64,000 nt of DNA, taken from contig CM073327.1 in the NCBI GenBank assembly GCA_037043015.1, forward strand, positions 11,266,727 to 11,330,726. The letters run 5' to 3'. Positions 19,348 to 53,530 of the stretch are shown here, piece by piece. The notes beneath the pieces are model-generated. The model did no database searches and was not told the origin of the DNA. It saw only the letters and a program-made list of their open reading frames with translations. This DNA comes from Bryum argenteum. Taxonomy: Eukaryota > Streptophyta > Bryopsida > Bryales > Bryaceae. Each line of letters starts with the position of its first letter. Within the stretch, counting starts at the first letter, position 1. A program made the position numbers and the translations under genes.

Positions 19348-19504
19348 TGCTCCAGGCCACACAGTTCTTCAAGCATCCAGTCCTACAGCCCCTCTAGCGT
19401 GAGGGTGGAACCTCGCTGCCTCAGCTGTCTGAGACCTCCGGACCTCTTCAATTCAGGCATTTTTGGGTGCCGTGTTGCAGATTATTTTGGTAGTGTCAGG
19501 CACC

Positions 19505-32879: not shown

Positions 32880-34657
32880 GTGCGGTTATTGGGAGACCTA
32901 CGTGTTGATAGTGGCGGTGCTAGTGGTTTTAGGTACTTCTACCATAAATGTGTGCAAAAAACTCAATTTTGGTATGGCGAAGATCCACATATTCGGATGT
33001 AAACCGAAATAGAATATTTGATGTGGTATATTTATTGAGCTCGTTAAGTGTTACTTGATTTATTCAATTGTTATTGAACATTGAAGTACAATATCTAAAA
33101 TAATTTCTTATTTTAGCATGTGTTGCAAATTTGTTGTAATTTGGTATTGTATATGATTTTCCTAAATAACAATATTGGGAATATATTTATGTCAATTGTA
33201 ATTTAAAAACCTACCTTCACATATAATTAGGAAATTTAAAAGTTAATTCTACCTCGGTTTGTATGGCAATCTTTAAATTCAACTTTTTCCTAGTTTAATT
33301 TAAGAACATATAATAGTTGCTTGTTTTTGGGCTTCAACCCAACCATATCTTTACGACAGATGCATGATTGAGATATTGCTTAGGACATTTTACCACATAT
33401 CCTAGAGCCAAACCCGTAAACCCTAATCCCTAAACAACTAAAACCAAAACCGTAAACCCTTACTAGTCTCTCCCCTAATCCTCATTTATGATAGATCTAA
33501 AACAAATTGTATCCTGAACTTTAATTTTGACATACCTTCACAAACATGTGAATCTTGTGCAAAATAGTCATTTTGAGTGGATGGCCTCGAGATAACGTTT
33601 ACGATATGTAATTTAGCATGTGTTGCAAATTTGTTCTTATTTGGTTGTGTATCTGTTCTAAAGAATAGAATTAGGATTAAATTTATGTGAATTAGGATTT
33701 CAAAACGTACCTTAATGTATAATTAGGAAATTTAGATTAAAATCTACCTTGGTTTGTATGGCAATCTTTATATTCAACTTTTTTTTCAAGTTTTATTTAA
33801 GAACGGATAATAGTTGATTGTATTGGGCTCCAAACCAATCATATCTTCACGACAGATGCATTATTGAGATTTTGCTTAGGATATTTTACCAAATACCCAA
33901 GAGCGAAGCCCGTAAATTCTAAACCCTACACGACTAGAACCAAACCCCTACACCCTAATCTCTACTCTAGACCACATTAATATTAAATGTAAAAGATATT
34001 GTATTGCGAACTCAATTTTTGATATACTTTCACATATTTGGTTGTGTATATGTTTAAAATAACAAAAGTGAGAAAGAATTTATGTGAATTATGATTTTGA
34101 GGCGTTCCTTCACATGTAACTAACAAATTATGTAGTTAAATCTACCTCGGTTTGTATCGCACTCTTTAAGTCCAACTTGTTTTTCGTCTTTTAATTTAAG
34201 AACGAATTATAGTTGCTTGTTTCGGGCTTGAAACCAAATATATCTTTACAAATGTTGCATAATTGATATATTGCTTAGGGCATTTTACCACATAGCATAG
34301 AGCGAAACCCGTAAACCCTAAACCGTAAACGACTCAAACAAAAACCCTAAGTCCTAATCCCTATCGTAAACCACATGTAAGGTAAATATAAAAGAAATAT
34401 TATCGTGAACTCAAATTTTGACATACTTTTGCATGAACATCATTTAATACCTTCAGGAACATTTGAATCATGTGTTATGAAGTGATTTTGAGTGTACAGC
34501 GTGGAGAAAACATTTACGATATGTAATTTAGCATGTATTGCAAATTTTTTCTAATTTGGTTTTGTATATGTTATCACTAATAGAATTGGGAATAAGATTA
34601 TGTGAATTATGATTTAAAAATGTACCTGTACATACTGTAATATTAGCGACTTTTGAA
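32880..34657. repeat. Telomere-like satellite array, left part
   Basis: Degenerate units of roughly 400-500 bp repeat near 33370, 33875 and 34270. Each contains TTGCTTAGGACATTTTACCA, then AACCCGTAAACCCTAAACC-type text (telomere-like CCCTAAA) and a stretch reading GGTTTGTATGGCAATCTTTA. The array continues on the far side of the hAT at 52673, showing that the hAT inserted into it. Confidence 0.75.
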
Positions 34658-34696
34658 CAGGGATGTCAATCCGGATGTCTTTTGGGTTTTTTTGGT

Positions 34697-34741
34697 CGGA
34701 CGGACGTCCGTCCGTCCAGGACCGTCCGGACGTCCGTCCGG
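34697..34741. repeat. Left subterminal GGACGTCC palindromes of the hAT
   Basis: Overlapping GGACGTCC / GGACGGACGTCC repeats lie 30-80 bp inside the left end, and the same palindrome recurs 5-35 bp inside the right end (52638-52657). Subterminal repeats of this kind are transposase-binding sites in Ac and other hATs; that role is inferred here. Confidence 0.65.
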
Positions 34742-34857
34742 GGGGTAAATCGGAATTACTATGCATGTAGTAAATTTTTTAACCGTCAGATCGTATTGAA
34801 AATCGCATCGTAGCCGTTCAAATAGTGTTGTGAGTGTAGGTGTTTACCGTTGGATTC

Positions 34858-35316
34858 AATCGGGCGGCCCAGGACCGTCCGATTGGCCTTGCCGACCGAC
34901 CGGTCGACGCCGTCGGATCGGTCGTAGCCGACGGATCGGTCGCTTGATCGGACGCCGGCCGTCCGATCGGTCGCGGTTTCGGTCGGCCGTGCGGATGGGC
35001 CCCGGTCGGTGTCGGTCGCGGTCGGCGTCGGCCGACCGATTGGTCGCGGTCTCCGTCGGCCGTACGATCGGCCGCGACCGGCCGGTCGGCGCCGGCCGTC
35101 CGATCGGTCGGCCGATCGGTCGGGTCGGCCGCCGGTGATCGGTCGGGTGGGCCGGGCCGATCGGTCGGTCGGCCGCGGCTGATCGGTCGGCCGCGGCTGA
35201 TCGGTCGCGCCGGTCGGCGCCGGCCGTCAGATCGGTCGGGCCAGTCGGCCATCGGCCGTCCGATCTAGGTCGCCGGTCGGCCATGCGACCGCGGCCTATA
35301 TTAGGCCGACCGGTCC
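34858..35316 (+). promoter_or_regulatory. GC-rich block A, promoter of the kinase-like gene
   Basis: About 450 bp of degenerate CGGTCGGCC / CCGATCGGTCG repeats in an otherwise AT-rich region. It is followed at its right edge by a TATA-like CTATATTA (35296-35303), then a pyrimidine-rich leader and the kinase-like coding region. It is similar to blocks B to E elsewhere in the element. Confidence 0.6.
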
Positions 35317-35477
35317 TCCACTCTCCTCACTTCTTTCCTTCCTTTTCAGGGTGCGGAGTAGCTGTAGGTTGGAAATTTTTTTAATTTTCATCCACTGGCT
35401 CCTTATCCTGGGGAGGAAAGAAGTCTTTCCGTTTGTAAGGGGAGAGATTTTGCTTTTTTTTTTTTTTTTTTCAAAAG

Positions 35478-36964
35478 ATGCCCAAACATGGGTCAAAGGG
35501 ATGGGGGAATCGAGGCCGGAGACCAAGGGTTGTCGGACATTTGGAGAAGTGGGAGCACCCATCCAATAAGTGCAAGAACTTTCTTCGGAGAATGTAATCG
35601 TGCGATTTTATGAGGCTAACAGTCTTCCACGTTTGTTCAAAGAAATCGTGAGATACAAAAAGGAAGTTGTGGCCAAATTCAAGGACGACATGATGGACCT
35701 CATGATGGAAGCGCTCCAAGATCCGGTGTGGAGAGAACGGGAGACCGATAAGCGTGGTTTCTGGATGGATGGAGGATAGATTAATTGATGCTCTCGGAAT
35801 CTTTGTCGACATATTGAAGAGGTATGAGAGAACCACTCGAGCGGGTGATGATGAGTTCAGGGATGTGGTATTGAGGGCGGAGGCTTTTCAAGAAGCGATG
35901 AGGCCGTATTCCAATAATGCAAACCGGGTTGGTTCCATAGGATGGTGGCGCACGGAACAAGGAAGGTTAATGGAGCTGGTTCGTACGAATAATTTGGTAG
36001 TAATTCCTATGACGGCCCGTATTATCGAGCTTGAGAAGAGGACTCTAAGGAGAGGATACGGCACAATTTCCAAAGTTCACATAAGAGGGGTTGTGGGTAT
36101 TGAAGAGTTTTGGGAATTTGCTGCAAAGACTCCCATCCATGCTGTGACACGACCTGACTTGGCCAAGGTGGAGCATCAGAATGAGGCGCTTGCTGTGAGG
36201 ATACAACATCCAGGTGTTATTCGTTTTATAGCCATTCATGCAAATAAATTCCAAGGCTATACGTATTGGTGGAATGGCGGCACGATTCGATCGATGTTGG
36301 CCCTCGATGCAAGGTATGGAGATGATGTTCATGGAGAGATCGGACTCTCACCTCATTCTGATGATGAGCTTATTCGAGCTTGGCAGTTGGTCCGGTTCCG
36401 CAAAAAACGAACAGAGTTTGCTTGGGCTTTAGTGCATATCATGTGTGAAGTCCACCGGTTGAACTACCTCCACAACGATGTGTCTCCAGACAACATACTT
36501 CTTCACTTCCCTCAAGATGAATCACGGGTGTATATTGGAGTATGTGATTGGGGGCTAACTACGAGCATGGATGATAAAATGAGGTCCTTGTATACGTTCA
36601 CAAAACCCCAAGAGCGAATTGATACTCTACAAGCACGATATTGGGTAGATCCTCGGGTGGCATACTTGTACAAACGGAGTGATGACATTCACGTTATTCC
36701 CCTTCTTGATTGCGCTTCGGAGGAGTTTGCTACGGCACGAATAGCACAACGCATCCTCAAGAAGAGCATGTCGAAGGCCTACGAGAATTGCCAAAGTACA
36801 ACGGGGCCTGACCGGTGGTGCAATCAAGACTTTGCAAATGCTTTTGACCAATAGTTGGAGATAGTGGCTGATGCAAAGTATACGTTGACCCACGTTGTCA
36901 ACCGCTTCATGGAATCATTCCATTGGCCGGTGCCAAATGATCATTATCGCACCAAGTATGATTA
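35478..36964 (+). pseudogene. Protein-kinase-like gene carried by the hAT, damaged
   Basis: The first ATG after the TATA box is 35478. The long ORF 35754-36854 (366 residues) contains a recognisable kinase fold, numbered in that ORF: Gly-rich loop near 101-107 (GYGTIS), candidate Lys125 (FAAK), candidate helix-C Glu144, catalytic loop HNDVSPDNILL at 240-250 (Asp242, Asn247) and metal-binding DWG at 265-267 in place of DFG. RYWVDP at 295-300 resembles the YWxAPE segment. An upstream piece (35570-35779) in another frame reads as part of the same protein, and the frame stays open for 36 codons after the TAG at 36852-36854. The copy therefore has at least one frameshift and one stop. Substrate is unknown; similarity is to eukaryotic protein kinases in general. 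Confidence 0.75.
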
Positions 36965-37679
36965 GCAAATTAGTTATGCGCATTTCTTTTAGTTCTTGCG
37001 GCTTTATTAGATTTTTAGATTCTTCATTGAAGTTCTGATGTAGATGTAAGCAAATTTTTTGTAGTAAAATGTATTACATGCCTTCTATATGTATCGGCTT
37101 CAAGTACATTCTTGTTTATATATACCTTGCACTGATTCTAATGAATGACTTCTTCTCCATTGTTTGTTATTTTATTTTATTACTTCTTACCTTCAATAGA
37201 AATATCTCCAAATCTTCATGAACAATATTTGAGAATGTATAATGAATTGTGGAACTTCTTCATTACATCAACCTTGCCTAGTTGCGATATTAATGGTTTG
37301 TCCGAAGTCAGCTCAAGCATAATATGACTTTTCTTACATATGCTTTTTTTTGAATGAATTGATGAACATATTATATGTTGGTGAGAGTGTGAGATCAAAA
37401 AAAGGCTTAAAGCCAAACAGAAGAAATTATTACCACCAAGTGAACTTATAGTATAAAATACAAAGACATCGCGATAAAATCCTTGAAATAACAAATTGCA
37501 TAGTATATTAATATACAACGATATAGTCCGATATTGGATAATCCATTCATAAACAAAATATGGATTTCTGTATTCTCAAAATTGGCCCCTAGCAAGGCGA
37601 TAATGGTGTAGACATTATCCGTTGCCAAAAACTACATAACCTTCACTATAATGACACTATGTATGATGATTTGTCATTC
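36965..37679. other. AT-rich tail between two convergent genes
   Basis: Shared 3' region of the kinase-like gene (+) and the Gly/Tyr-rich gene (-). No further gene is seen. Confidence 0.5.
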
Positions 37680-38897
37680 TTAATCCGATTCTTCATCATC
37701 GTGTTTACGACTTGGCGCAGCGCCGTAAGAAGGTGGTCCTCGAGAAGATTCTCCAAACAAGTACGTTTGCCTAAAGTTTCTTTCGGCTTCAAGCTGTTCA
37801 ATGTATTCCTGCTGACTTAGAAGTGTGGCTTGTTGCAGATCTTGTTGGTACCTCGCCTCTTCGTCCTCCGGAGATAGATAAGGTGCTGAAGGCAGGTCGT
37901 TACTTCCGTATGCATTCTGACCATATCCATAATTTGTGTAGCCAACAATGTCTGATCTTCTATCATATTGACCTCCATACTCGTATGTTTCCTTCGGGTG
38001 TGATGGCCTACGGTACTCGGGACTTCCGAATGTTGTACCGTATTGGTTTCCACGATTGTATGGGTTTATAGGATGAGTTGGGCTTGAGTTGCATTGAGCA
38101 TTGGATCCGCTACCCTGCTCACCTCCTAAACCATGTGTACCTCCTGTATACATTGGAGATGGGTAGTTCGAACTAGATCCACCTCTACCGTACTCGCGTT
38201 CGGCTCCGTACGTGTTTTGCTGATGAGGTGGCATATAACTCACCGGAGTACTGAATTGGTGGTTTCCATGGTAATACCCCTCACTTCCTGTGCCAAAGGA
38301 TACTGGTGCTTGATGATCGTCATGGTTTGAGTCTTGCTGAGTGCCCCCATATGCCCTTGGAGTTCCATGTTGTTGAAGTTGGGCATCCATATCAGCTGAA
38401 CGTTCTGAATACGTAGTATAACAATCGCTTGGTCCCATCCAATTTGTGGGAATGAATCGGTTGCTGCGATCCAATAAATGCACGTTCAAACCTATCACAG
38501 TGGTCCAGTCAATGTCCTTGTGCAGGACTATTTCAGCCCACACCATGGCCATGGTAGAATACAACATCAATTCTGGCCTTGTGTTCTTGATTCCAACTGC
38601 AATTGTGACTTCGTGATATCTGTGCGCAAAATGGTCGCTCTTGCAACTCTTCACTGGGCCTTCACGACGAGGACCATATTTCTCTGCTTCGTGCCGCGGC
38701 CATAACTTCATGATGTGGTACATCTTCACGTACTTCTTGCACATGGTGCAATTCCAAATGTCCGCCCTCTCCTCTCGCCAACCCGGCTCTGCAACACAGT
38801 TTGGGTCACTCCATGCTTCCCAATCCATTTTTGGAGGGTCGCCCTTTGGTCGTGGAGACTTGGCCTCGCCCCTCGAACGTGAAAACTTCGGCGCCAT
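37680..38897 (-). CDS. Cys-motif, Gly/Tyr/Ser/Asn-rich protein of the hAT
   Basis: An uninterrupted 405-codon gene. I start it at ATG 38897 because the TATA box at 39044-39036 places transcription near 39010, downstream of the in-frame ATG at 39029. Residues 1-30 are basic with SPRPKG-type text. Around 48-72 is WNCTMCKKYVKMYHIMKLWP followed by RHEAEKYG, a C-x2-C plus His pattern like a BED or other small zinc finger. A globular part follows to about 150 (FIPTNWMGPSDCYT). From there to about 340 it is low-complexity, rich in Gly, Tyr, Ser, Asn and Gln. The C-terminus is a charged helix with LLSQQEYIEQLEAERNF and ends DDEESD. It may be a DNA-binding accessory protein; no family is recognised. 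It is the best preserved gene of the element. Confidence 0.7.
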   Translation of the reverse strand: MAPKFSRSRGEAKSPRPKGDPPKMDWEAWSDPNCVAEPGWREERADIWNCTMCKKYVKMYHIMKLWPRHEAEKYGPRREGPVKSCKSDHFAHRYHEVTIAVGIKNTRPELMLYSTMAMVWAEIVLHKDIDWTTVIGLNVHLLDRSNRFIPTNWMGPSDCYTTYSERSADMDAQLQQHGTPRAYGGTQQDSNHDDHQAPVSFGTGSEGYYHGNHQFSTPVSYMPPHQQNTYGAEREYGRGGSSSNYPSPMYTGGTHGLGGEQGSGSNAQCNSSPTHPINPYNRGNQYGTTFGSPEYRRPSHPKETYEYGGQYDRRSDIVGYTNYGYGQNAYGSNDLPSAPYLSPEDEEARYQQDLQQATLLSQQEYIEQLEAERNFRQTYLFGESSRGPPSYGAAPSRKHDDEESD

Positions 38898-39035
38898 TTC
38901 CAGCAGCGACAAGTATGCACAGTGTGGGCGTGGGTGACCCACGCGGACTCTGAATAACGCAGTCGATGCAGCTTTAAAAAAAGCCGCAACGTACAGCTCG
39001 TTCACCAGAGTGAGAGACAATGAGCCCATCCCCTC

Positions 39036-39315
39036 CTATTTATGCCGACCGGGATCGGACGCCATTGGCCAGCTGGCATTGGCCGTCCGATCTCGGCCGG
39101 CAGCCGTCAAATCGGCGATCCGGCGGCCGGTACGACCGATCGGGGTCGCACGTCCGATCGGTGGATCGGGGCCGTCCGATGGCGCGGCCGATTGGTCGAT
39201 CGGGGCCGCCGATCCCGACCGACCGGCGACCGGCATCCGGCCATCCGACCGGGCCGGCGACCGACCCCGTCCCCCGGGCGACCGGTCGGTCGCTCCTTCC
39301 GCGTCCCCCCTTCCC
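39036..39315 (-). promoter_or_regulatory. GC-rich block B, promoter of the Gly/Tyr-rich gene
   Basis: A block of CGGTCGGCC-like repeats whose left edge has TAAATA (minus strand, 39043-39037) within CATAAATAGG, oriented towards the gene at 38897. The mirror arrangement to block A supports a promoter role. Confidence 0.6.
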
Positions 39316-39760
39316 CCTCCTCCTCTTGCCTCACCCCAAAACTCCCCGTTTGCACAACTTCGATCACTTCCTCGCCTTGCATACCTGCATTTTCAAAAGT
39401 TCTATATTTAGCCTGTTTGGTCCACGTGGCGTCTAAATAAGGACAGGGAATGTTCTGACAAGGGAATGTCGGGAATGTCTTTTCGTCATAAACGGGAATG
39501 TTTTATGACAAAGATACTATCGGCTTTAAATAAATCTATAATAAGGGACTCTTTGCAAGAGGAGGGAAGGCCAACAAATCTCCAAGCCAATTCACGCACT
39601 TTTTGAGTTATGTTGCCGAATTAGCTTTAATTGAACAATACATTTAACAACCAATTTAGTGGGGCCAATTTTCCGAGTCGTGAAGTCCTTTGGAGTTGAA
39701 GCCCATGTCTAGAAGGAGAGCCAAGGCCATGGGGCCAATTCTTATTATTAACTAGAGTCC
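39268..39760 (+). repeat. Direct repeat within the hAT, copy 1
   Basis: From the phrase GCGACCGGTCGGTCGCTCC through a CCTCCTCTTGCC-type pyrimidine stretch, TATTTAGCCTGT, GGACAGGGAAT and GGGGCCAATTCTTATTAT. It recurs about 2.86 kb downstream at 42134-42630 with high similarity over about 300 bp and decreasing similarity afterwards. Confidence 0.8.
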
Positions 39761-42002
39761 ATGTTTTTTTTTTTGTACACATTTATTTTTTATTTTTTAT
39801 TTTTTGGAATTATTCTTCCTTAACACCTTAACAACCATGGCCACCATTTCGTCTTTTATCGTCACGGCCAAAAAATGTTTCATATTCAATTTCAAATGTT
39901 ATGATCTCGCATCTAGTGATGATCCAACGGTTGAAGATTTCACACTACTACATATGGTAGTTTACTCAAGATCCTATGGTTGAAATTATAAACTATATCC
40001 AAAAATATTGGACATAGCCCCTTTATAGTGAAACCACCTATTCTCGTACACTTAAGGAAAATTGAGGGAATCTATATACTTGGTGTGAGAAAGGAGTGGG
40101 TTACTATTTTTCACGGATAGGAAATAGAGATAGACAAGCTAACCCTATTTATGTGCTTTTTTAAAGCACACACATAAAGAAATAAAAATTTTATAAGGAG
40201 AAGCCTAAAGGCGGGCACCCTAAATATGTACGCATAATGTAAATGCACGGGAGGTGAGATCTTTATAAAGGCAAGAATCTTTGCCTCCCGCATTTAGGTG
40301 GTTTCATCATAGTTCATAGTGGTGAGTGCTAGTATTGCAAGCTCCCATGGATTCACATTCATTTCTTCTATCTCCCAACTTTTGTCAAAATTTATCCATT
40401 CTCACTAGGAGATTTTGCCATGTCTTGCAGGTTATTCATGACTTGCCCCATACTGTGTACCCTGAGGTGGCCCTAAATCCCCTCTGATTACATTCCATAA
40501 ATTTTACCTAGTCCTTAGGGAGAGTATATTGATGTCTCACATTGGAGAGATCCAAGTATATATGAAATGTAGGTGATCATGTGTGAGCATTTACTTTTTA
40601 TAACTTTGGTCTTACTGAGTTTGTCAATATTTAGACTTTCTATTTGGGCCTTAACATTTCCACATTGTATGGTCTATATTAATTGATGGGTATTTGGAAA
40701 TTACTCCATCGTTGTGTATTCTAATTAGTAGTACTTATTATAAAAAATATGGTGCATAAACAATTATTTCTATTATTCGCTATTTTTTGTTTGACAATCT
40801 TCAACTAACCTAGGAGAATATATATAATCTAGTACATATGATTAATTGTAGCATTATTCTTATTGTAAGGATTTGAATAGTTACTTATTTCCCTCTTACA
40901 AAGGTAATTGAAATAAGTTTTCATTGTTACTATTTTCGCAATCATAAAATAAGAGAAATAAATAGGGAGACAAATAAATTTTAAAAAATATCCCACCCTA
41001 TAAGTGTTTAACATATGGCAATAATGGCATCAACTTCTAAATTTTTAAGCATATTTGATATTGTACAAGTATAGTACATTAGTACTAGGATTAGATGTTA
41101 TATCAAATTGATTATTCGTATACTATGATTGATTGATTTGGGAATAGAATATTTTCAAGAGCCATCACTTCTTCATTTACAGTATGTAATGGATACATTC
41201 TCTTGTGGATAAACTTTAAGTTCTTGGTTAAAGATGTATGAATTACTATGTAGGCCTCTAGGGTATAGGGTTTAGGGTATAGGGTTTAGGGTTTAGGGTT
41301 TATGGGCTAGAGGATTTGGGGTGGATTTCATTTTAATCCTAGTTTTTGTGTTGCAAAGCTTTGCAAACACAATTGTGTGTGGATGTAAAATAATGGATTA
41401 ATGTATGTATGGTGTAGTTCTCAATTATATTTTACATGGATACAAGTTGCACTTCTCTACATCGCATACTTAATGTGTGCAAAATAATCTATTTTGTATT
41501 TATCATTTTTGATTGAAGATGTTATTGACATGGAATAAATCACACATTTATTGCAAAGAATATATAGGTACAATATTCAACCTCAACATACGAATTATGA
41601 TTCCAGAGTCTTCAATCTCATAGCCTATTTTAAACCAATATTGGAATAGAGTTACTATTGTAGGTCATGTGGCTCAGAGTTTAATTCATAGAGCCTCATA
41701 GATCATAACGTATGAGTACTGGAGTAGTGTTTGTACGAAACATCTTTGAATTCGTGAAGATCTATACTTTTATGGAGTCCACTCGAAATGGTTATGAACT
41801 TAAAATTTAAAGTTCAAATGTATCCGTGAAAAAAGAATACTTAGCATTTCAGAAATCAACATAGGATTTTTTTTTCATTGTGTAGTAATTACTGAAAATC
41901 GAGTAACAGAAATCTTTGAGAAATAAAAAAAGGATCCTATGCAATTTTATCTCATTTTAGTTATATATTTAAGGAAAAATTAAAAAAAAAAAAAAAACTG
42001 TA
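39761..42002. other. AT-rich interior of the hAT without genes
   Basis: No gene is supported. The stretch from about 41090 to 42020, with ACATAGGATTTTTTTTCATT and AAAAAGGATCCTATGC, is repeated in shortened form at about 43060-43690. Confidence 0.5.
41256..41304 (+). repeat. Interstitial TTTAGGG-type telomere-like repeats
   Basis: Four to five copies of GGGTTTA or GGGTATA in tandem, the Arabidopsis-type telomere unit used by most plants. It is too short to be a chromosome end. Confidence 0.8.
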
Positions 42003-42165
42003 CTGCGGCCGCCCATATCGGTTGGCCGCCATCGGGGCGGGTGTGCGACCGGCCCGGCGTCTGGCGACCGGCCCGGCGTCCGGCAACCGGCCCGGCGACC
42101 GCCGACCGGTCTGGGGACCGACCACGTTCCCCGGGCGACCGGTCGGTCGCTCCTTCCGCGTCCCC
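42003..42165. promoter_or_regulatory. GC-rich block C
   Basis: Similar CGGCC-rich repeats (GCGACCGGCCCGGCGTC twice) directly after a 16-base A run. It opens with GCGGCCGCCCATATCGG, close to the opening of block D. It is joined to direct-repeat copy 2 and has no clear TATA box or gene, so it looks like a duplicated promoter fragment. Confidence 0.5.
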
Positions 42166-42630
42166 CCTTCCCCCTCCTCCTCTTGCCTCTCCCCAAACTC
42201 CCCGTTGCACAACTTCGATCACTTCCTCGCCTTGCATACCTGCATTTTCAAAAGTACTATATTTAGCTTGTATGATCCACGTGGCGACTAAATAAGGACA
42301 GGGAATTTTCTGACAAGAGAATGTCGGGAATATCTCTTTGTCCCACGCGAGAATGTTTTATGACAAAGATACTCTTGGCTTTAAATATATTCATAGTAAG
42401 GGACTCTCTTCAAGGGGAGTTAAGGCGAGCAAATCTCCACGCCAATACACTCACTTTTTGAGTTGTTGTGCCCAATTGGCTTGAATCAAAGTAAACATTT
42501 AACAATCAATATAGTGTGGTCAATTTTTTCATTTGTGAAGGCATTGAGAGTTGATGCCCTTGTTTATAAGGAAAGCAAAGGCAATGGGGCCAATTCTTAT
42601 TATAAGTTAGAGTCCATGCTTTTGATTGTA
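42134..42630 (+). repeat. Direct repeat within the hAT, copy 2
   Basis: Partner of 39268-39760. Together with the 41.1/43.1 kb pair it shows that the middle of the element was built by overlapping internal duplications. Confidence 0.8.
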
Positions 42631-43605
42631 CACCTTAATTTATTACTGTTAAAATATTCCTTCTTAACCCCCTAAAGATCCATGGACACCAAAGTGGAGG
42701 TTTCCTATTTCGGGCAGCTTATATGAAGAGGTCAAAAGTAATAATTTTTTATTAAATTTTTTCTAGGTGCTCCTTACACCGCCAAGTGCATGTGGTAAAA
42801 TTTGCATATCCAAATTCCAAATTTACAACCTACATTTAGAATATTTAGGTCTGAAGTCCATTAAGGGCAGTTAAATTTAGTCTTTGTTTGAAATTCTTTT
42901 TTGGAAATATGTTCATGAACAATTTACTACTTCAGTTCCAAAGTGACCCAAGTCAAAATGTTTGTCAATTTCACAAGGGTAGCCTTGAGAGATTCCAAAA
43001 ATAATCTTCACAATTTCTAGTAATTTCCGAATTAACTCTTCCTTCGATTGATTGTTTTGAAAATATAAAATTTTAAATAGGCATCACTTCTTCATTTAGA
43101 GTATCTAGTGGATAAAATCACTTGTGGATAGGATTTGTGGTTTATGGTTTAGGATGTATGAATAACTCTTTAGGATGAGTTCCAAAATAAGTGTCCTACA
43201 TTAAGATGAGGATAGTCAGGATACTCCAATTGACATTCTAAACCATGCAATATTGGAATAGAGTTACTGTTGTAGGTCATGTGGTTAAAAGTTTGATTCA
43301 TGAAGCCAATAGTCAATTAAATTACAAAAGGAAAATAGAGAAGAAAGATATTGATTCGAAACCAAATGAATGCCTTATGTTTGAAACATCTATGAATTTG
43401 TGAAGATTTACACTTTAAAGAGTCCACTCAAAACGGTTATGAACTTAAAATTTAGAGTTAAGATGTATCCGTGAGAAAATAATATATTGCATTTCAGAAA
43501 TCAACATAGGATTCCTTTTTTCAGTGTGTAATAATCACTGAGAATCAAATAACAAAAAACTTTGCGAAATAAAAAAGGATCCTATGCTATGTAAGATTTC
43601 TGAAT

Positions 43606-43639
<34 letters not shown>

Positions 43640-43668
43640 TTTTTTAAAAAAATTAAAAAAAAAACCGC
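42631..43668. other. AT-rich interior of the hAT
   Basis: No gene is supported. At 42663-42830 is a relative of the TTAA-flanked element at 3526-4102, starting with CCCCCTAAAGATCC. An (AT)n microsatellite lies at about 43606-43625. Confidence 0.5.
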
Positions 43669-43991
43669 AGCGGCCGCCCAGATCGGTCGGCCGCGTTGGT
43701 CGACCGGCATCGGTCGGCCGCGTTGGTCGACCGGCATCGGTCGGCCAACATCGAGCGGCCACGATCGGCCGTAATCGGTCGGCCGATCGTGGCCGGTCGG
43801 CAGCGACCGGTCGGTAGCGATTGGCCGGCCCGAACGACCGGCCACGATCGGCCGGCCCCGATCCGTCGACCGGATCGACCGGCCACGATCAGTCGGCCGG
43901 ACCGGCGGGCCAGCATCGGTCGCGGCCGTGATTGGCCGAGCGACCGGTCCGTGCGGCCGGTCTCTAGGGTTGGGAGGGAGGGGGGATAAAA
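43669..43991 (+). promoter_or_regulatory. GC-rich block D with TATA box
   Basis: CGGTCGGCC-type repeats including two perfect 27-bp tandem units (43684-43710, 43711-43737). The block ends in GGGATAAAAGG (43983-43993), a TATA-like box oriented to the right and followed by a pyrimidine-rich leader like that of the kinase-like gene. Confidence 0.6.
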
Positions 43992-44186
43992 GGCCTTTGG
44001 GGCCTCATTTCCCCTCACTTCTCCTTGTATTCATCCATCTCAACTGAGCTGCAACCGTGGGCATTAGCTTCTCGTGTGCTGCATTTGTGGTGGCGGGGGG
44101 AAGTCAGCGTGATACTTGCGGCTGCTGCATCGAATTTTTGCATACTTGGGATATCTTCGGGGTATTTTAAATACTCCCTACTCTTC

Positions 44187-44345
44187 ATGGCGACGGATAT
44201 TGATAACACGAACATGGAAGCTGATTCTGAACAGACCTTGAGGTCACCTACATATATATATATGTTTTTTTTAGATTGTATGGTTGTTGTTTTAAAAATG
44301 ATGAAAATGCCACCATTGATCCATGGGGCCTTATTTTTGAAGTAA
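44187..44345 (+). CDS. Short remnant ORF behind block D
   Basis: The first in-frame ATG after the block D TATA box begins MATDIDNTNMEADSEQTLRS and runs 52 codons into AT-rich sequence. The acidic start looks like a true N-terminus; the rest (hydrophobic, Met-rich) may be intron, since AG|GT candidates occur after LRS. No continuation is found before the transposase tail at 44591, so the gene appears truncated. Function is unknown. Confidence 0.35.
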   Translation: MATDIDNTNMEADSEQTLRSPTYIYMFFLDCMVVVLKMMKMPPLIHGALFLK

Positions 44346-45582
44346 AGGGTTACAATCTTTTTGATTTAATGTGCATTTCTTTTGTATGCTTGAGAGTGAA
44401 GACTATCGTACGACAAGTATGTAAAAATATATGTAATATTTTTCAAAACATTAAATGTAGTCATGTAGACAATAGAATCTCCAAATGCATTTGGAGTATA
44501 ACAATAAAGTACTACAGTAAACTATAACTACAATTTCTATAATAAGTATGAGTCCTATGAACCTATACTATATAAAGATGCGAAATTCAACTACTCATCA
44601 GGACCAGAGGATTGCTCATAATCGCTATCTCCCTTCACTTCAGCTCCACTAGATCCCGTAGGATCATATTCATAATCGCTTGGAACCTCCTCTTTAATCT
44701 TGGGTTTATTCTCAGGACATTTTATATTCCCATACTTATGCCAAGTATCAAATTCGGGGAGATTAACAAGGATCTTCGGTTTATTAGGCGGAACAATTGG
44801 AACCGTTGCAGATTTCCGTTTATGCGACTTGGAAGTGCCAAGCATGTGCTGTAACCCCGTGGCAGTACGAAGAACATTGGCATTCTTTAAATACCTGCCC
44901 AACGGTATATCAGAGTCACTAGAGATGCTCCCATATTTGGCTCTTGAAAGGGATACTAAACCCTTAGACGATTTCTCCAAGGTTGTCGTAACCCTTGTAG
45001 TAGAGGGTTGAAATAAAGCGCGGGGAGTAGCACATTGATCAGATACTTGATCCTTACTACCGGATGCGATATTTTCCGCGACCGGATCAAAGCTCATAGT
45101 GCCCGCAGTTGTGTTGCACGCAGTGGTCTTCGCATCTATCGCCTCCTTTTCCAACCGTAAACCACTAGCGATAACAGGTAGGACGTTATTTGATTTGTCC
45201 ATGCCGCCTTGTGTCATTAACCGGGATAACGGCTGCTCATCATCTAGATCATCCGCTGAAAGACCATGAGCGATAAAATCACCATTACCATCATGAACAT
45301 TTGGAGCATCTTCATCATTTGAAGCGGGGAAGAAAATCATATCATCATCTTCATCGCCAAATTCAAAAACATCGTTGTCATCAGACTCTGATTCGTCCTC
45401 GACAGCTCCTCATCATTCTCATGTACTTGGTCTTCCTCTAAATCCAAGTTCTCTCTATACCACCGCCCATCATCACTCAACTTATCATTCGCGAGCAATT
45501 TCGAGTTGGAATATATGTAGACCAAGTCATCAGCTCTACCCGGTAGTAACCGATTCCGTTTTTTGTCGTGAACATAAGAGTA

Positions 45583-46822
45583 CACTACAAGGAAATGGGG
45601 CCCGAGATGACAAATAGTTGACAAAAAAATGTCTGAAATGACGAAGTCAGCATCTCGCAGCCCAACTCTGTCACTTTGGACATTATTAATGTTTTTGTCA
45701 ACTTCTTGTCAAATTCTAGTCAACTTCTTGTCAATTTATTTTATTTACGACAAGCATGGAATTGCTAAAACTTTTTGTAGACTTTAACCGTAGGATCTTG
45801 TAATTTACTTGTTTTTGAGCTACCGCTGAAATTTTCAACCGTTGGATCTTCTCCATTTGTGAGATCATAACGTTCAAAGTTGATGCAAAATGTCAAAATA
45901 CGACATTTTGCATGAAGGGCAGAAACTTTGAAGAACTATAACTTCTTCATCCGGACTCCGTTTTGGACAAAATCACTTGGGTTGGTTTTCATATAGAAAA
46001 ATACCTGCATGAAATATTGCAAAAAAAATTTTGAAAAAAAAAAGTTTTTTTACATCGTGAAAAATATTCAAAGTGTGCTCGGTAGTAAAAAAAGGCCCTA
46101 GCATAAAAACAAAATAATTTCAAAAAAAATTGAAATTTTTTATACATATAAAAAAATACCTGCATGGAATATTTCAAAAAAAAATTTTGAAAATTTTTTT
46201 TTTTTTACATCGTGAAAAATATTCAAAGTCTGCTGGGTAGTAAAAAATGGCCCCAGCCTCAAAAAAAAAAAAATAAAAAAATAAATTGAAAATTTTTATA
46301 CATGTAGAAAAAGACCTGCATGGAATAGTGCAAAAAAAAATTTTGAGAAAAAAAATTTTTTTACATCGTGAAAAATATTCAAAGTCTACTGTACTTGTAC
46401 TTAAAGCATATATATATAAAAAAAAACATACCTTCGGACATGAAATTGGATAGTAGGTGAGTTGGCTAGTCACTTAGACTATGCCCGTGAGGTCAAGGGA
46501 TCGAATCCCCTAGCATACCACTTGTGAGCCTCCACCGGTGGGGCCCGCATTGCCCGCGGTAGGGCCCTCGCTACCCCCTTGATGGGGCCCGCGCTATTTT
46601 TCGTTGTGCCAACGCTGCTGCCCGGCGTGCCCGGGCAGAGAAATGTTTCCTCAAAATTTCCGAATTTTTAATTTTTTTGCATTGTGGAACTTCGTCCAAA
46701 TTGACAAATGAATGATAGAATTCTGTCAATTGAGTGACCGAATCAGGGTCTCCTAATTGACGGAGCAATTGGCGGGTTTTACACAAAATTTCGTCAATTA
46801 GGATACTATTCTCCTTGTAGTG
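45583..46822. mobile_element. Non-autonomous CACTA element inside the hAT transposase
   Basis: Inverted ends CACTACAAGGA (45583-45593) and TTCTCCTTGTAGTG (46809-46822) are flanked by a perfect 3-bp duplication GTA (45580-45582, 46823-46825), the CACTA signature. No transposase is present. The interior has three ~155-bp units (near 45990, 46143, 46298) matching those of the element at 329-1834, and a tRNA-like segment. It interrupts the dimerisation region of the hAT transposase, so it is younger than the hAT insertion or was carried along by it. Confidence 0.9.
46463..46508 (+). promoter_or_regulatory. tRNA-like segment in the CACTA element
   Basis: TGGCTAGTCAC (46463-46473) resembles an A box and GGATCGAATCC (46498-46508) is a near-perfect B box, with AGGGATCGAATCCCCT looking like a T-arm stem-loop. 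A GC-rich GTGGGGCCCGC tail follows, as in the tRNA-like segment at 1538-1591. Probably a SINE-like or tRNA-derived piece, not a working tRNA gene. Confidence 0.5.
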
Positions 46823-46988
46823 GTAGCTACTCGATTTTGCGTCATGGCCGACGCGGGACACGGTCTGCGCTAGTATTCGCTTTGCAATTGGAGAGAGGAG
46901 CTTAGCACAAGCACCTTCAAACTCCCACCATGCATGTGGAGCTAGTTTTTGAGTATTAGGCTCCAGCATGTCATGGAATAGTGGACCC

Positions 46989-49900
46989 TGTCGGATGCCA
47001 TGTATTCAGTTTATCTTCCCTTACACGTTTATTGGTGTAAAACCCGTGTTCGAGTGACTCGTGTATCGTTCCGGGGATTACGTGAAGTGACCAAGGCAAG
47101 TAGTGCTAAAACAACCAAAACCACAAACGCGTCCTAGTCCCAACTTATGTTTTAGCCTTGCGCAGCGGGTATCCCTTTGCAAGAGGGGATGCACAAAGAC
47201 TCTTTCCCTTATGTTTATCGTGGCGGAAACTTCCACACTTAGACTCTACACACACACACACACATACTAAGGCACACATTACGTCCTCACAACTAATCCG
47301 TCCTATCCGTCCGAACTAGCGGTCACGCAGCCGTCCCGGTTACCCTATCACCCTTACTACAATGACAGGACTCCAAGAGCTCGAATCCGGCTAGAAGACG
47401 TCTACACGTATTCTCAGTCACGTCGCGCTTCATCCGTCTTCTCGAGACTACGAGAGGAACCCAAGTCACAGTGGCGGTGGAGGTCGGATTGGAATCCGCC
47501 TCACACACTCTACTCCTGCACTCTCCCGGACCGTAAGTGTCTACCACATGATTTCCCTCTCTCAGACGCCTAGACCAGTTCAAGACACAAGGCACTCAAG
47601 AATACGCCCAACCCGACTTCAATTCCACAGAAACGATCTAACAAAGAATCCGGATTCCTAACTCCCAACTCACACACACAAAGTAGATCCGGCTTTCCAA
47701 GCACTCAACTGAAAAGGAGACAGGGAAATGAACACGCCGAATATGCGCGTAAGAAGGTTCGATTAACACTCAAGCAAGGAATGCTTTGGTGGACAAAACT
47801 CCCACCTATAAGTACTTCTAAGTCAACGACTTAGATCCCTAACTGGATTGCGGCGCCGGCCTACCACGCCTACTCCTCAAAAAGCGGCACGCATTCCCAA
47901 AAAGAAAACACTATACTGGCCTAGGACGGATACCAATCTGACCTCCTAACTCTGGCCGTCCTTTGACTGCCGGCCTCTAAGACGTCCTACCTCTTTCTTC
48001 GCGAACTAACTCCGTGCTTGGCCGCTTGATGGCGTCGGCTGCGATACGTCCCGCTTTCACTCTCTTGCCCGTCGGGTGATCACGTACTCGTCCTCGCCGG
48101 AGTTAGTCTCGTCCCCGCTCTTCAACTCTTCCTCTTCGGAATGCTCGAGGCCGATGTCGTGAAGCTTCTGCGCCCCGGGAGACTTCTCGTATTCCTCGGC
48201 CGTGAGCTTCCTCTTCGCGGTGCGCGTGTTCTTGGCCGGCGAGTCTGCTGGGGCGGGTGCATCCGACTCCGTCTTCACCTTCGCCTTGCCCTTCGTGTCG
48301 GTCGGATCGAGGGGCCGAATCCGTCCTCGTCAGATCCGGCCGCGGGGTCTTGGCCGGAGTAGAAGTGAAGGCCGGCATCACTACCTCCTTCATCTGCTCC
48401 CGGACGGCGTCGAGCAGCACCTTGACCTCGGCGTTGCTCTTCTCTACTTTCGTGGCGTACGTCTTCGCCGCCAAGAGGAATTTCTTGAATGTCTCCGCCT
48501 TGAAAACCTCCGACTCCGGATTCCGGCCTCGAAGGTTTCGCCCTCTGCAGCACCTCGGCCGTAACCTCGATTTCCACGAGCTTTACGACCGCTGCTCGTT
48601 TGCCGTGATTACGGCTGCCTTCCGACCAGGAGTTCCTCCTCCTTCTCCGACCGTCTCGCGAAGACGTCTATTCTCCCGATTAGCTTGGTCACTTGCTTCT
48701 CCGTGCAGCCGGAATCGCTCCTCGTCCGGTTTGGAGTCCCACTGCTTGACCTCCAACAACGTCTTCACTCCAAATTCTTGGCATAGCTTCGCCAGCCAGA
48801 TCCTTGGTAGAGGAAGTGCGGCACCGCTTCCGTGAAGTGGTGCCATGCTCGCCTCATGGGATCCGGGTGATTGGCGGACGGACCGAGAGGTGGGGAGTCG
48901 GGGTCGTTCGGATTCATGGGGTTCTCCCAATCGGCCGTAACTTCCCCTTCATCCACCGGCCTCGAGGTTGTCCCCTCTCGATCCCGAGTTCCGCCTCGGT
49001 CGGATTCGTGGGAGGGGACAGGGGACGGAAGGATGATTACCTGCGACGCGTCCGCGGTGGGGTTGCCTCCGAGCCGCTCTCCAGTGCGTCGGGTGGAATG
49101 TCCCCTTCGTCGATCCGACCTCGTCCTCCTCCTCTTCCGAGTACACGGCCTTGCTATCCGTACTCTCCTCGACTCGAACACGCCGTTGTTTTGCGGCGAC
49201 AGTAGCGATCTCATAGTTCGACTCCTCCTCATCCGTCAACCTCCTCCTCCTTCTTGTACGGTGGTAAAGAAAAGGAGTAATAGGGCTAGGACGGGTTTTA
49301 CCTACGTTTTCCATAAGCCGGGCGACTAAGTCGCGGATGATCATCCCCATCCCGTCTCCCGTTCGCGCGCAGAGCCCAGGCGGTGTTGGCCACCGTACGG
49401 TGATCCGTGCGGCTTCTCTCCGTGAATAATCGGCGCCAAAAACTTGATGACGGCGCGCTCCCTCGGTTCCCGCAATCCTCGATCGAGTAGCCATTGTTCT
49501 TGTGTGGATCCCGTGGAACGCCTTCTTCGCCCACTTGTGTTTCCGGCCGCACAACCCTACTCCGTTGTTTACGGTCGGGCCGTAAACACTCTCCGATCTT
49601 TCGGCCGTCCGGAAGCGGCTTCCCTCTAACCGTCCCCTCGAATCGGTTTTGGCGCGCCGACCTTGATCTCGCGCACCATCTCCGCGTCGCGCAATCCCGG
49701 GCGTATCCAAAGAGGCCGGCTAACCCCATCCTCTCGAGGTCTTCCGTCAAGGACTTCTTCTCATTCTCCTCGATCGGAATACACGGCGACACGAGCTTGA
49801 TGGAAATCTTGACTCCTCTTGCTCCTGAGCGGAAGCGGACGCCGTTCCTGCCATCGGAAAGAAGTGCGCAAGGAAATAGAGAGTCGCCGGGCTGAGGTCG

Positions 49901-50392
49901 GCCAGTGGGCCGGATCGCAGCTAAGGACGGAAAGCAGAAAGACGGAGGGCAGGAGCGCAAGACGACAAGGGGCGCAGAAACGAGGAGGCGGTGACGACAA
50001 GGGGCGGACGGGTGGCCTTTTATCGAGGGGGCCGGAGTTAAGTCCGACCATCATGACATGGTCCGCCGCCATAATTGTCCTCCCCGTACGGAGTCGCCTT
50101 CTAGATTTCTCGCCATTATTAAATTCTTTGCCACTCCGTCCTTCACCTACCATCATAACTCCTAATCCGTCCTCTGACAGCACGTCCTAGCCGTACGGGG
50201 ACAGAGTACGGATTGGCAAATCCGTCCTACTTAACATAAACTAGAGTTTAACTAATTCCTTTATTTGTAAAAACGTAATTGCCTTATAGTATACGGCTTA
50301 GCAAATACATAGGTCGGATTCTAGACACTATACTTATTCTTAATGCGCATTAGAACATAATGGCCAAAAATCGAAAAAAACGGGGTCCGACA
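46989..50392 (-). mobile_element. LTR-retroelement-derived insertion (solo LTR or internally deleted), fossil
   Basis: A 3404-bp segment begins TGTCGGA, ends TCCGACA and is flanked by a perfect 5-bp duplication GACCC (46984-46988, 50393-50397). These ends fit an LTR retroelement. No second LTR is evident, so it may be a very long solo LTR or an internally deleted element. The GC-rich minus strand (about 49.96-48.06 kb) carries a broken coding region with charged, Arg-rich composition and a motif block around PSPITPFLYH that resembles the antisense ORF at 58.3-57.3 kb. A GATAAAAGG box lies on the minus strand near 50.02 kb. Several breaks are present. It interrupts the hAT transposase. Confidence 0.7.
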
Positions 50393-52147
50393 GACCCCTT
50401 ACTCGAAACGCAAGAAATTCACTCACCACGTCAGCGTAATCATCCGCGGGACATAATTTTTGTAAAACACGCTTGCAAGCTATTGTAAGATCGGGATCGT
50501 CAGCTAACTCTTGGTCTTGTAGTAAATAAGGATTTAAAAGTGCAGCCGCGCCATGTAAATCCGTTGTCATGAGTCGTTTCCGATGGTAAAACTCCTCTTT
50601 TGCGGTGGCCACCTCAAGTGGTTCCAATGAGATGGGCGGTGCGTGCAAAGTATGGACATGTCTCTCAAGATCACGCATGATATGCCATGCCTTGCCCGTA
50701 CTAGAAGCCTTGCCGTCGAATTCTCTCAGAGCGTACACCACGGGGGCAACCATATCCCGTAGTCTTTTGCATTGCTTCCAAAACTCATCGCTCAACACCA
50801 CCTTCTTGACCTTACGTGAGAATATAAGTTTATCTCTAGCGATATACCGTCTTCTTCGAGGCATAGGTCATGAACATAGGGTCGACAACAACTTGCTCCC
50901 AATGATTCCTTGACCTCCAACAAGCGATCTATCATTATGAATTGACTAGCAAATCTTGTTTTCCTGGCATCGTGAGGGTCAATTTCGCCTCGTGTTTACG
51001 AAACACAGACTAGGGGCATTTGTCGCCTCTTGATAAACTTGACCATTTTCTTCGCCATGACCAAAGTATTCGCCATCCATCCATCCTTTTCCCAATCCTC
51101 CAACAACAAGTCCATTGCATGTGTCGCACACCCTTGCATGAAAATGTGCGGATATTTCTCAAGGACTATTCTTGAGGCATTGAGCATTCTGAAGCATTGT
51201 CTCATGCATACTTGAACAATGTTCTCTGGTCCAACTTGTTCTATGTACTTCAACATGAGAGTTGACATGTACACCGCTATTTTTTCTTGGCCAGTAGTAT
51301 CGACAGCACCAAGAAAAAGCTCTCCGGCTTGAGTCACGAGCATCGCATTCACCAAAGGGCGACTAGTCACAGATGACCATCCATCCATAGTCAAAGTTCC
51401 TCCAAACTTCCGAAGGCTCTCAGAGAGTCTACTATCTAGTTTCTTTTGTAACTCCGTCTTTACTTCTCCTAACAACCTTGTCCGAATGTCATGGTAGGAT
51501 GGTGGAGCATAGGATTTTCGAAATCCCGCAGTCTTCATCACGGCAGCTTTGAACGCATCATTGCGGGCTACTGAGAATGGTATATTTGCTTCGTAAAAAA
51601 ATTTCGCCCAAAGTTTATCCAACTCTCGCCTATCCGCTTCTACAAAAGTAGCTTCAATTGAAGATTGCTTCGTTTGCTTCATAGATCCAAACATCGGGCG
51701 AGTATCCCTTATTCCCCTCATAAGCATGGAAGAAGCAGAGGTTGACCCTACCAAAAGATTTGTTGAATTCATGGGGGTGCCTAGCGAGGACCCTACACAA
51801 GAGTCACTCCTAGGGGTTTTGAGAATGTCATGTTTTGAAGCACCTGGAACGTCCGTGGATGGAGTGAGAGAACATTCACCGAGAAATAGTTCCAATTCTC
51901 CGTTATATGGAGGGAACTCCCCACCACATCTTAAAAATAACTGCCTAATTTCCCTAGGCAGCTTTGGGCAAAGGGCAGAACTCGAATCCCTATGTCCAGG
52001 AATCTTTTCGTACCCATAATGGCTCAAATTCCGACTCTTCTTCTTCGAAACAATTACATGACATAGTGAGCACAGTAGGAAGGACCCAGACGCTTTGCCT
52101 TCCTTCTCGATGTCTCTAAACCAAGGCTCATGTGGAGCAGGGCCCAT
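50393..52147 (-). pseudogene. hAT transposase, N-terminal and central part
   Basis: From ATG 52147 an open frame of 383 codons runs to a TAA at 50998-50996. It has a BED-like finger (C26-x2-C29, H43, H52), a Ser-rich linker, and a DUF659 domain from about 214 including TLTMDGWSS (Asp255 as a candidate catalytic residue) and CATHAMDLLLEDW (C340, H343). The usual 'VCMDN' Asp is replaced by VCMRQ at about 313-317, probably from small indels. After the TAA the same frame continues with TRFASQFIMIDRLLEVKESL, then coding shifts frame and runs 50864-50393 (contains WHIMRDLERHVHTLH and LLNPYLLQDQEL) up to the LTR-type insertion. The TATA box GTATATAAG is at 52355-52347. This is a DUF659-type plant hAT transposase, inactive. 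Confidence 0.88.
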
Positions 52148-52431
52148 TTTGATAAATAGGACGCCTCAAAGTCTTAAACAATGGTGGGACCGTGACGGGA
52201 AAAAAATGGCAAGAGTTCCTTACGGAAATCCTCACTTCCGAACTCAATACCTACCAAGCAATGTACACATAAAATGAATTATGTGGCTCAAAGCTCTTGG
52301 AAAGTGTTCAAAATTCGGAAGTGAAATGAGACTCAATGTCTCTTCTCTTATATACCATCCAACTCCGAGTATGACCGTTGCAATTTGAAGTTGAAATGCT
52401 CCTAAACCGTTGGATGCTCAAAAGGGCCATC

Positions 52432-52555
52432 TGGCCATTGGCGGTCGCCGGATGCGAGGGCCGGTCGCAGTGGCCGACGGCCGGTCGCCCTGGCCAGCCG
52501 ACCGGTCGGTCGGGCCGACGGAGAGGTCGGGGACCGGTCGACGGGGTGGTTCGAC
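52432..52555 (-). promoter_or_regulatory. GC-rich block E upstream of the transposase
   Basis: CGGTCGGTCGGGCC-type repeats near the right end of the hAT, 75-100 bp upstream of the minus-strand TATA box (52355-52347). It completes the set in which every gene of the element has a GC-rich block beside its start. Confidence 0.55.
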
Positions 52556-52672
52556 CAATGAACGCACCCCGTTGGTCATTTACCCTTAGTAAAACGACCA
52601 GATTTTCTAAGTCACGGACGGTCCCCGGACCCCTGCCGGACGTCCGGACGTCCGGACGCTGTGACATCCCTG

Positions 52673-53530
52673 CTTTTGAAGGAAAATCAACCTCTGATTG
52701 TATGGCCATCTTGAAATTCAACTATTTATTCTAGTTTCATTTAAGAAGTAATACGCCATATTCGTTAAATTGGCCCCATCCCTTTTATATTTGGCCGCAC
52801 ACTATTGAAATAAGTAGAGTGAAAAGAAACAAAACAGTTTTAAGATGGGAAAATATATTAATAATTTATTTTCGTCCACTCAAGGCATGTTGATTTCAAT
52901 GCAATTATCTACATGGCATTGTTTTCATTTGTGCTATATACATTATTTCAAGCTGCCAAAATAATAGGGATTGGCGAATTCATGGCGTCTAATAATAGTT
53001 GCTTAATTAGGACTTCAAACCAAAAATACCTTGATTAATGTTGCATTATTGAGATATGGCTTAGGATATTTTACCACATACCCTAGAGCCAAACCCGTAA
53101 ATACTAAACCCTAAACAACAAACACGAAAATCTTAAACCCTAATTTGTACCCAAACCCACATTTAAGGTAACTAAGAAATTTTTTTTTCCGTGAACTCAA
53201 ATTTGGTTCAGTCTACGTTCAAAGTTGAAATAAGTTTATGTGAATTATGATTTCAAAATGTAACTTCACATATTATTAGCAAATCTTGAAGTTCATTGCA
53301 TCTCCGTTTGTAACGCAATCTTTAAATTCAACTTCTTGTTTGTAGTTTCATTTAAGAAGTAATGATAGTTGTTTGATTTGGGCTTCAAACCAAAAATATC
53401 TTCACGAAGGTTGCAATATTGAGATATTTTAGGATATTTTACCACATACCGTAGAACCAAACCCCTAAACGACTAAAAACAAAACCTTAAACCCTAATTC
53501 CTACCTTGGAAGACGCTAAAAAAGGCTCGA
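52673..53530. repeat. Telomere-like satellite array, right part
   Basis: Units near 53060 and 53420 carry AGGATATTTTACCACATACC followed by AAACCC(G/C)TAAA-type text, as on the other side of the hAT. A copy of the dispersed ~80-bp repeat (52749-52832) is included. Confidence 0.75.

What the first reader, a model, noticed from the sequence alone, without database searches (positions are those of the whole stretch)
34658..52672. An 18-kb multigene hAT transposon
Perfect 11-bp inverted ends and a perfect 8-bp target duplication (CTTTTGAA) enclose 18,015 bp. The element holds a DUF659-type hAT transposase plus a kinase-like gene, an intact gene for a Cys-motif low-complexity protein and a truncated gene. 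Known autonomous hATs usually carry one transposase gene in 3-5 kb. Even without later insertions this one is about 13.4 kb. The sequence shows the ends and genes directly; that the cargo genes are an integral part of a transposon family, and not a chance capture, is inference.
Basis: partly seen in the sequence, partly recalled or inferred. Interest (0 to 1): 0.88.

Follow-up and report, generated by a model that had tools for sequence, protein, structure and literature searches.

The report
Four-gene 17-kb hAT transposon family
A plant genome, probably a moss, holds many copies of an unusually large "cut-and-paste" jumping gene that carries, besides its own transposase, a kinase-like gene and two zinc-finger-type genes in fixed order, where such elements normally carry one gene.

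Summary
In detail: perfect 11-bp inverted ends and 8-bp CTTTTGAA duplications enclose 18,015 bp, and six of six fetched empty sites have one CTTTTGAA and no element. The cargo is part of a family. End patterns occur 128 and 191 times. On contigs C1-C3, 34 of 62 left ends pair with a right end within 60 kb (controls 0 and 1), sizes peaking at 16.6-17.7 kb. Of 25 pairs with both ends located, 19 have perfect duplications. Three further copies read in full carry four genes in one order: kinase-like, Cys-domain/Gly-Tyr-rich, Cys-domain+RING, hAT transposase. dN/dS is below 1 in 35 of 36 comparisons. The window copy is defective: most of the RING gene is gone and two later insertions split the transposase. 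Ends, duplication and domains make it a hAT; about 17 kb and four genes is a new variant (longest of 276 surveyed plant hATs: 7,144 bp). The genome-wide transposase search did not complete. Cargo function is inferred: most likely element-serving regulation or anti-silencing.

The parts
34650..34657 (.). left target-site duplication CTTTTGAA
   Evidence: single copy in 6 of 6 fetched empty sites
34658..34668 (+). left 11-bp terminal inverted repeat CAGGGATGTCA
   Evidence: 30-base left-end pattern found 128 times at up to 2 mismatches
34700..34745 (.). left subterminal GGACGTCC-type repeats
34860..35290 (.). GC-rich CGGTCGG-type repeat cluster upstream of the kinase-like gene
35706..36851 (+). 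protein-kinase-like ORF (382 aa; lacks the N-terminal part present in the 496-aa copy L006)
37683..38897 (-). intact gene for a Cys-domain protein with Gly/Tyr/Gln-rich tail (405 aa)
39053..39340 (.). GC-rich repeat cluster upstream of the Cys/Gly-Tyr gene
42026..42197 (.). further GC-rich cluster, part of a duplicate of the block at 39220-39644, with no gene recognised beside it
43682..43922 (.). GC-rich repeat cluster upstream of the Cys-RING gene remnant
43968..44249 (+). leader and first about 21 codons (44187-44249) of the Cys-RING gene (1,039-1,102 aa in relatives elsewhere); the rest, about 3.3 kb, is deleted in this copy
44594..45582 (-). C-terminal part of the hAT transposase gene, with acidic tail
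45583..46822 (.). later insertion 1, ends CACTACAAGGA... (CACTA-like, name recalled), duplication GTA
46826..46987 (-). transposase fragment between the two insertions, with the start of the hAT dimerisation region
46988..50393 (.). later insertion 2, ends CTGTCGGA, duplication ACC
50397..52165 (-). N-terminal and DUF659 part of the hAT transposase gene, frame broken
52455..52521 (.). GC-rich repeat cluster upstream of the transposase gene
52610..52661 (.). right subterminal GGACGTCC repeats
52662..52672 (-). right 11-bp terminal inverted repeat TGACATCCCTG
   Evidence: right-end pattern, 191 hits
52673..52680 (.). right target-site duplication CTTTTGAA

Best explanation
The interval is one defective copy of a large, high-copy hAT-superfamily DNA transposon. 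Shown: the family's full length is about 17 kb; it has 11-bp CAGGGATGTCA ends and 8-bp target duplications; and the copies read in full carry four genes in fixed order, a kinase-like gene (+), a Cys-domain/Gly-Tyr-rich gene (-), a Cys-domain+RING gene (+) and a hAT transposase (-). Inferred: the transposase binds the subterminal GGACGTCC repeats and moves the whole 17 kb by cut-and-paste. The three extra genes are long-standing parts of the element that serve its own expression or propagation. My best single guess is that the Cys-domain proteins bind the GC-rich CGGTCGG clusters in front of every gene and keep them expressed, the RING partner removes a host silencing factor, and the kinase-like protein modifies the transposase or a host factor.
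For: 27 of 30 kinase loci (the 30 best hits; the window itself is one of the 27) have the same left end upstream, with different flanks. Ends pair in one orientation, 34 of 62 on C1-C3 (controls 0 and 1), with lengths peaking at 16.6-17.7 kb. Perfect 8-bp duplications in 19 of 25 end pairs with both ends located. Same four genes in order in copies C1:40351361-40368448, C2:3727397-3744258 and C4:18062479-18084962, each with a perfect duplication. Empty sites with one CTTTTGAA in 6 of 6 fetched. DUF659 E 1.4e-31 and hAT dimerisation E 1.2e-12 in the C1 copy. Kinase dN/dS 0.45 summed over 300 pairs of 25 copies; 35 of 36 comparisons of the four genes below 1. Positions K218, E237, D335, N340 and D358, which I read as catalytic (from general knowledge), are invariant in 29 aligned kinase-family proteins. 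The Cys-gene and Cys-RING proteins share one N-terminal domain (hhalign probability 99.7, E 1.9e-26). GC-rich clusters lie before each gene in the C1, C2 and window copies.
Against: No functional data. The genome-wide transposase search did not complete, so whether every transposase copy travels with the cargo is untested. Only 35 of 62 left ends have a kinase among the 110 best hits; 3 of the others were looked at, and all 3 have kinase matches in pieces, with frames apparently broken. 28 of 62 left ends have no right end within 60 kb, though the right-end pattern allowed no mismatch. Of the 25 end pairs, 3 match at 7/8, 2 at 6/8 and 1 not at all, and in one further case no left end was found. 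The element's own kinase copies score below Pfam's kinase cutoff. Some young kinase pairs have dN/dS above 1 (maximum 1.4) and many values of 0.5-0.8, one of 1.01, show weak or decayed constraint. Whether the genes travel together in other species is untested.
Confidence: 0.85

Rival explanations
1. A hAT element once captured host genes by chance (Pack-hAT-like) and the passengers were amplified with it, without a role in the transposon.
For: Gene capture by plant hATs is documented as Pack-hAT (PMC8903248, passages). Many copies have stops inside the kinase. No search for parent host genes outside the element was made.
Against: The transposase is in the same element; the cargo is whole genes by comparison with relatives elsewhere; order is constant in the copies read; dN/dS is below 1 for the cargo at levels like the transposase's; two cargo genes share a duplicated domain, which suggests evolution within the element (inference).
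Confidence: 0.1
2. The cargo proteins are transposition cofactors rather than anti-silencing factors: the kinase-like protein tunes the transposase and the Cys-domain proteins help pair or protect the ends of a 17-kb substrate.
For: Kinase-type positions are conserved. GGACGTCC-type subterminal repeats lie at both ends.
Against: The CGGTCGG-type clusters sit in front of internal genes too, not only at the ends, which fits gene regulation better.
Confidence: 0.3
3. Macrotransposon: two neighbouring small hAT elements moved together and carried the DNA between them.
For: hAT mobility needs mainly the terminal sequences (recalled).
Against: One transposase gene lies at one end of each copy read; no internal copy of the ends was found in the 20-kb C8 stretch, the only one scanned for them; 15 of the 34 paired lengths fall within 16.6-17.7 kb.
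Confidence: 0.02
4. The cargo benefits the host plant (for example stress or sex-linked functions) and the transposon is kept for that reason.
For: Right ends are about three times denser on the largest contig C1 (54 in 44.1 Mb against 14 in 34.6 Mb on C2 and 12 in 30.6 Mb on C3).
Against: High copy number with much decay is typical of selfish elements; no host link is shown.
Confidence: 0.04

Closest known systems
hAT superfamily (Ac, Tam3, Gulliver and relatives)
   Same: 8-bp duplication; ends CAGGGATG fit the plant pattern [T/C]AGNGNNG (PMC6027215, passages); DUF659 and hAT dimerisation domains
   Different: About 17 kb with four genes. The longest of the 276 plant hAT sequences in that survey was 7,144 bp, and it found no hAT in the moss Physcomitrella.
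Pack-hAT / Pack-TYPE elements (PMC8903248, passages seen)
   Same: Non-transposase coding DNA between hAT ends
   Different: Pack-TYPE elements are non-autonomous and hold captured gene fragments; here cargo genes accompany a transposase gene in all 3 further copies read in full
VANDAL21 of Arabidopsis, with the VANC anti-silencing protein (PMC5735166, abstract and section list seen)
   Same: TE-encoded accessory protein; target motifs that form tandem repeats
   Different: Recalled to be of another superfamily (Mutator-like); no homology tested; anti-silencing is only a proposal here
Multigene giant elements such as Starships, Teratorn and Maverick/Polinton (recalled, nothing read)
   Same: Large multi-gene DNA element
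   Different: Those use other recombinases or polymerases (recalled); here a hAT transposase

Membership tests
hAT superfamily | 8-bp target-site duplication | tested here: met
   19 of 25 end pairs perfect, 3 at 7/8, 2 at 6/8, 1 not matching; one further pair had no recognisable left end
hAT superfamily | short terminal inverted repeats fitting [T/C]AGNGNNG | tested here: met
   CAGGGATGTCA at both ends; pattern from PMC6027215 passages
hAT superfamily | transposase with hAT dimerisation domain (and DUF659) | tested here: met
   E 1.2e-12 and 1.4e-31 in the C1 copy; dimerisation match just below cutoff in the broken window copy
hAT superfamily | cut-and-paste activity of the transposase | not testable with these tools
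   needs an excision assay
Pack-TYPE (Pack-hAT) | non-autonomous, no transposase in the element | tested here: not met
   transposase sequence lies inside copies C1, C2, C4 and the window, although the frames read here are broken
Pack-TYPE (Pack-hAT) | captured fragments of host genes | tested here: inconclusive
   relatives elsewhere are whole proteins of similar length, so the cargo is not fragments; host parent genes were not searched for
VANDAL/VANC-like anti-silencing element | accessory protein that removes DNA methylation from the element | not testable with these tools
   needs expression and bisulfite sequencing

The most novel reading that the evidence does not exclude
A lineage of hAT transposons in mosses has become a self-contained four-gene parasite: besides its transposase it encodes a dedicated kinase and two proteins sharing a new zinc-binding-like domain, one fused to a RING ubiquitin ligase, which act through repeat clusters in front of each gene to overcome host silencing. 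As far as my ten paper searches show, it would be the first hAT known to carry its own counter-defence set.
Probability: 0.3. Interest if true: 0.88.

Novelty: new variant of a known kind. Interest (0 to 1): 0.75.

Why it matters
hAT transposons are usually small one-gene elements (recalled; in one survey the longest of 276 plant sequences was 7,144 bp). A high-copy family that moves about 17 kb with a kinase-like and a RING gene under apparent selection widens what this superfamily can carry. It supplies a plant system for asking how transposons evolve accessory, possibly anti-silencing, genes. It also warns that such genes can be annotated as host genes; one kinase relative is a hypothetical protein of Ceratodon purpureus.

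Tried and rejected
Chance ends: rejected by copy number, pairing and empty sites. Kinase as a later insertion into the element: rejected, since 27 of 30 kinase loci have the left end. Viral or prokaryotic origin of the cargo: two scans of viral contigs gave no relative and one of genome contigs gave one weak match (35% over 58 residues). Structured RNA above Rfam's gathering score in 34600-52700 and tRNA genes in the window: none. The solved-structure search gave only weak protein-kinase matches for the kinase profile and nothing meaningful for the transposase part. Pfam gives only a weak zf-C3HC match (best E 0.0054) for 9 of 27 Cys-gene relatives. Ten paper searches (open-access library, listings seen; one search showed 25 of 136 papers, 6 of 10, 15 of 30) listed no multigene or giant hAT.
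Full report
Observation. The interval 34658-52672 begins with CAGGGATGTCA and ends with its reverse complement, flanked on both sides by CTTTTGAA. I joined the two flanks with one CTTTTGAA (277 bases) and searched the window's own genome (258.8 Mb, 25 contigs). Of 44 matches (40 of 274 candidates were scored), 2 are the window's own flanks and 23 run from end to end (one of them from base 2) at 83-97% identity, 16 of these at 94% or more. Six of the 23 were fetched, and all six show a single CTTTTGAA where the element sits in the window; all six also lack 5 bases that the window has about 11 bases to the left of the duplication. The whole 18,015 bp is therefore an insertion into a repeat.

Family. 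A search with the kinase-like protein gave 110 matches; 108 of 1,066 first-look candidates were scored. Of the 30 loci returned, which are the best hits and include the window, 27 have the same extended left end upstream of the kinase, with different flanks. The left-end pattern occurs 128 times (up to 2 mismatches) and the right-end pattern 191 times (no mismatch; overlapping spacer choices count some places twice), with 0 hits for the patterns read backwards. Only the first 100 places of each search are listed. On C1-C3, 34 of 62 listed left ends have a same-strand right end within 60 kb; the controls gave 0 (opposite strand) and 1 (upstream). Fifteen of the 34 lengths lie between 16.6 and 17.7 kb; two of these share one right end.

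Target duplications. Of 15 end pairs examined, one had no recognisable left end; of the other 14, 10 have a perfect 8-bp duplication, one matches at 7/8, two at 6/8 and one does not match. Of 10 more, 8 are perfect and 2 match at 7/8. With the window that is 19 perfect of 25. The pairs were chosen by me, not at random. Perfect cases include lengths of 15.3 kb (my arithmetic) and 27.3, 30.8 and 35.4 kb, presumably short through deletion or long through nested insertions (inference).

Gene content. Three further copies, each with a perfect duplication, were read in full: C1:40351361-40368448 (17,088 bp), C2:3727397-3744258 (16,862 bp) and C4:18062479-18084962 (22,484 bp). The C4 copy has about 5.6 kb more than C1 inside the third gene, which I read by eye as a retroelement and did not test. 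Each copy has, in order, kinase-like (+), Cys/Gly-Tyr (-), Cys-RING (+) and transposase (-), with frames broken in places. A fourth stretch, C8:16425600-16445599, has the left end, kinase, Cys, Cys-RING and the C-terminal part of the transposase, but no right end and no N-terminal transposase part within the 20 kb read. Three left ends that lacked a kinase in the best-hit list were checked, and all three have kinase matches in pieces.

The genes. The kinase-like family (29 aligned: L006 with 496 aa and 28 of the 54 hits) matches Pkinase at E 0.001 or better in 26 of 29 members; the element's own copies score below Pfam's cutoff. K218, E237, H333-N334-D335, N340 and D358-W359 are invariant (reading them as catalytic positions is from general knowledge). 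The Cys/Gly-Tyr protein has a conserved N-terminal domain with Cys and His positions and a variable low-complexity tail. Pfam gives only a weak zf-C3HC match (best E 0.0054) in 9 of 27 members. The third gene has a RING finger (zf-RING_2, E 3.2e-9) and three relatives of 1,039-1,102 aa elsewhere. Its N-terminus shares the Cys domain (hhalign probability 99.7, E 1.9e-26). The transposase has DUF659 and hAT dimerisation domains. The best-scoring kinase relative with an organism name is a hypothetical protein of the moss Ceratodon purpureus, 57% identity; another, 47%, is labelled as from a Bacilli metagenome bin, which I take for contamination (inference). That the genome is a moss is therefore likely but not shown.

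Selection. Over 25 kinase copies of equal length (300 pairs) the summed dN/dS is 0.45; the median falls from 0.58 at dS below 0.05 (range 0.32-1.4) to 0.40 at dS 0.10-0.15. Between the window, C1, C2, C4 and C8 copies the ratios are 0.33-0.78 (kinase, 10 comparisons), 0.22-0.77 (Cys, 10), 0.55-0.72 (Cys-RING, 6) and 0.45-1.01 (transposase, 10); broken frames probably inflate some. This fits constraint on the cargo in the past plus decay of individual copies. The nearest other kinase matches over at least 360 of the 382 residues are 96% identical, so there is no sign of very recent movement of this copy.

The window copy. It lacks about 3.3 kb, most of the Cys-RING gene (junction near 44249). 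Its transposase is interrupted by a 1,240-bp element with CACTA-like ends (45583-46822, duplication GTA; superfamily name recalled) and a 3,406-bp element with ends CTGTCGGA (46988-50393, duplication ACC). It is a defective member.

Regulatory layout. CGGTCGG-type clusters lie in front of the kinase, Cys, Cys-RING and transposase genes, and at one further place without a recognised gene, in the C1, C2 and window copies; GGACGTCC-type repeats lie at both termini. Function is inferred: shared binding sites for an element-encoded regulator, comparable in logic to VANC of VANDAL21 (PMC5735166, abstract and section list).

Comparison. By ends, duplication and transposase it is a hAT. By size and content it is not like the plant hATs surveyed in PMC6027215 (passages): 276 sequences, longest 7,144 bp, none found in Physcomitrella. 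It does not fit Pack-hAT as defined in PMC8903248 (passages), because a transposase gene is present. Ten paper searches listed no multigene hAT; the library holds open-access papers only and three of the listings were partial.

Noticed in passing
window 9167-9988, 13204-14016, 19433-20584: Three pectinesterase-type ORFs (Pfam PF01095), a small gene cluster left of the element.
   Followed up: no
window 60980-63091: ORF with reverse transcriptase and RNase H domains and weak protease matches, part of an LTR-type retroelement (inference).
   Followed up: no
window 53790-54682: AT-rich tandem array of a 106-bp unit (8.4 copies) about 1.1 kb right of the element.
   Followed up: no
window 39220-39644 and 42077-42499: A block upstream of the Cys gene is duplicated about 2.86 kb away at 85-87% identity, with a fifth GC-rich cluster but no recognised gene; possibly the remains of a lost gene or a non-coding unit.
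   Followed up: partly
contig C1 of G000 (44.1 Mb): Right ends are about three times denser here (54 distinct) than on C2 (14) and C3 (12); C1 might be a sex chromosome or otherwise TE-rich (inference).
   Followed up: no
window 45990-46391 and 812-1302: A 156-159-bp tandem repeat inside the CACTA-like insertion recurs near the left edge of the window at about 80% identity.
   Followed up: no
C4:5255616-5307284 (L011/L050): End pair 51.7 kb apart (my arithmetic) with a 7/8 matching duplication, perhaps a copy swollen by nested insertions.
   Followed up: no
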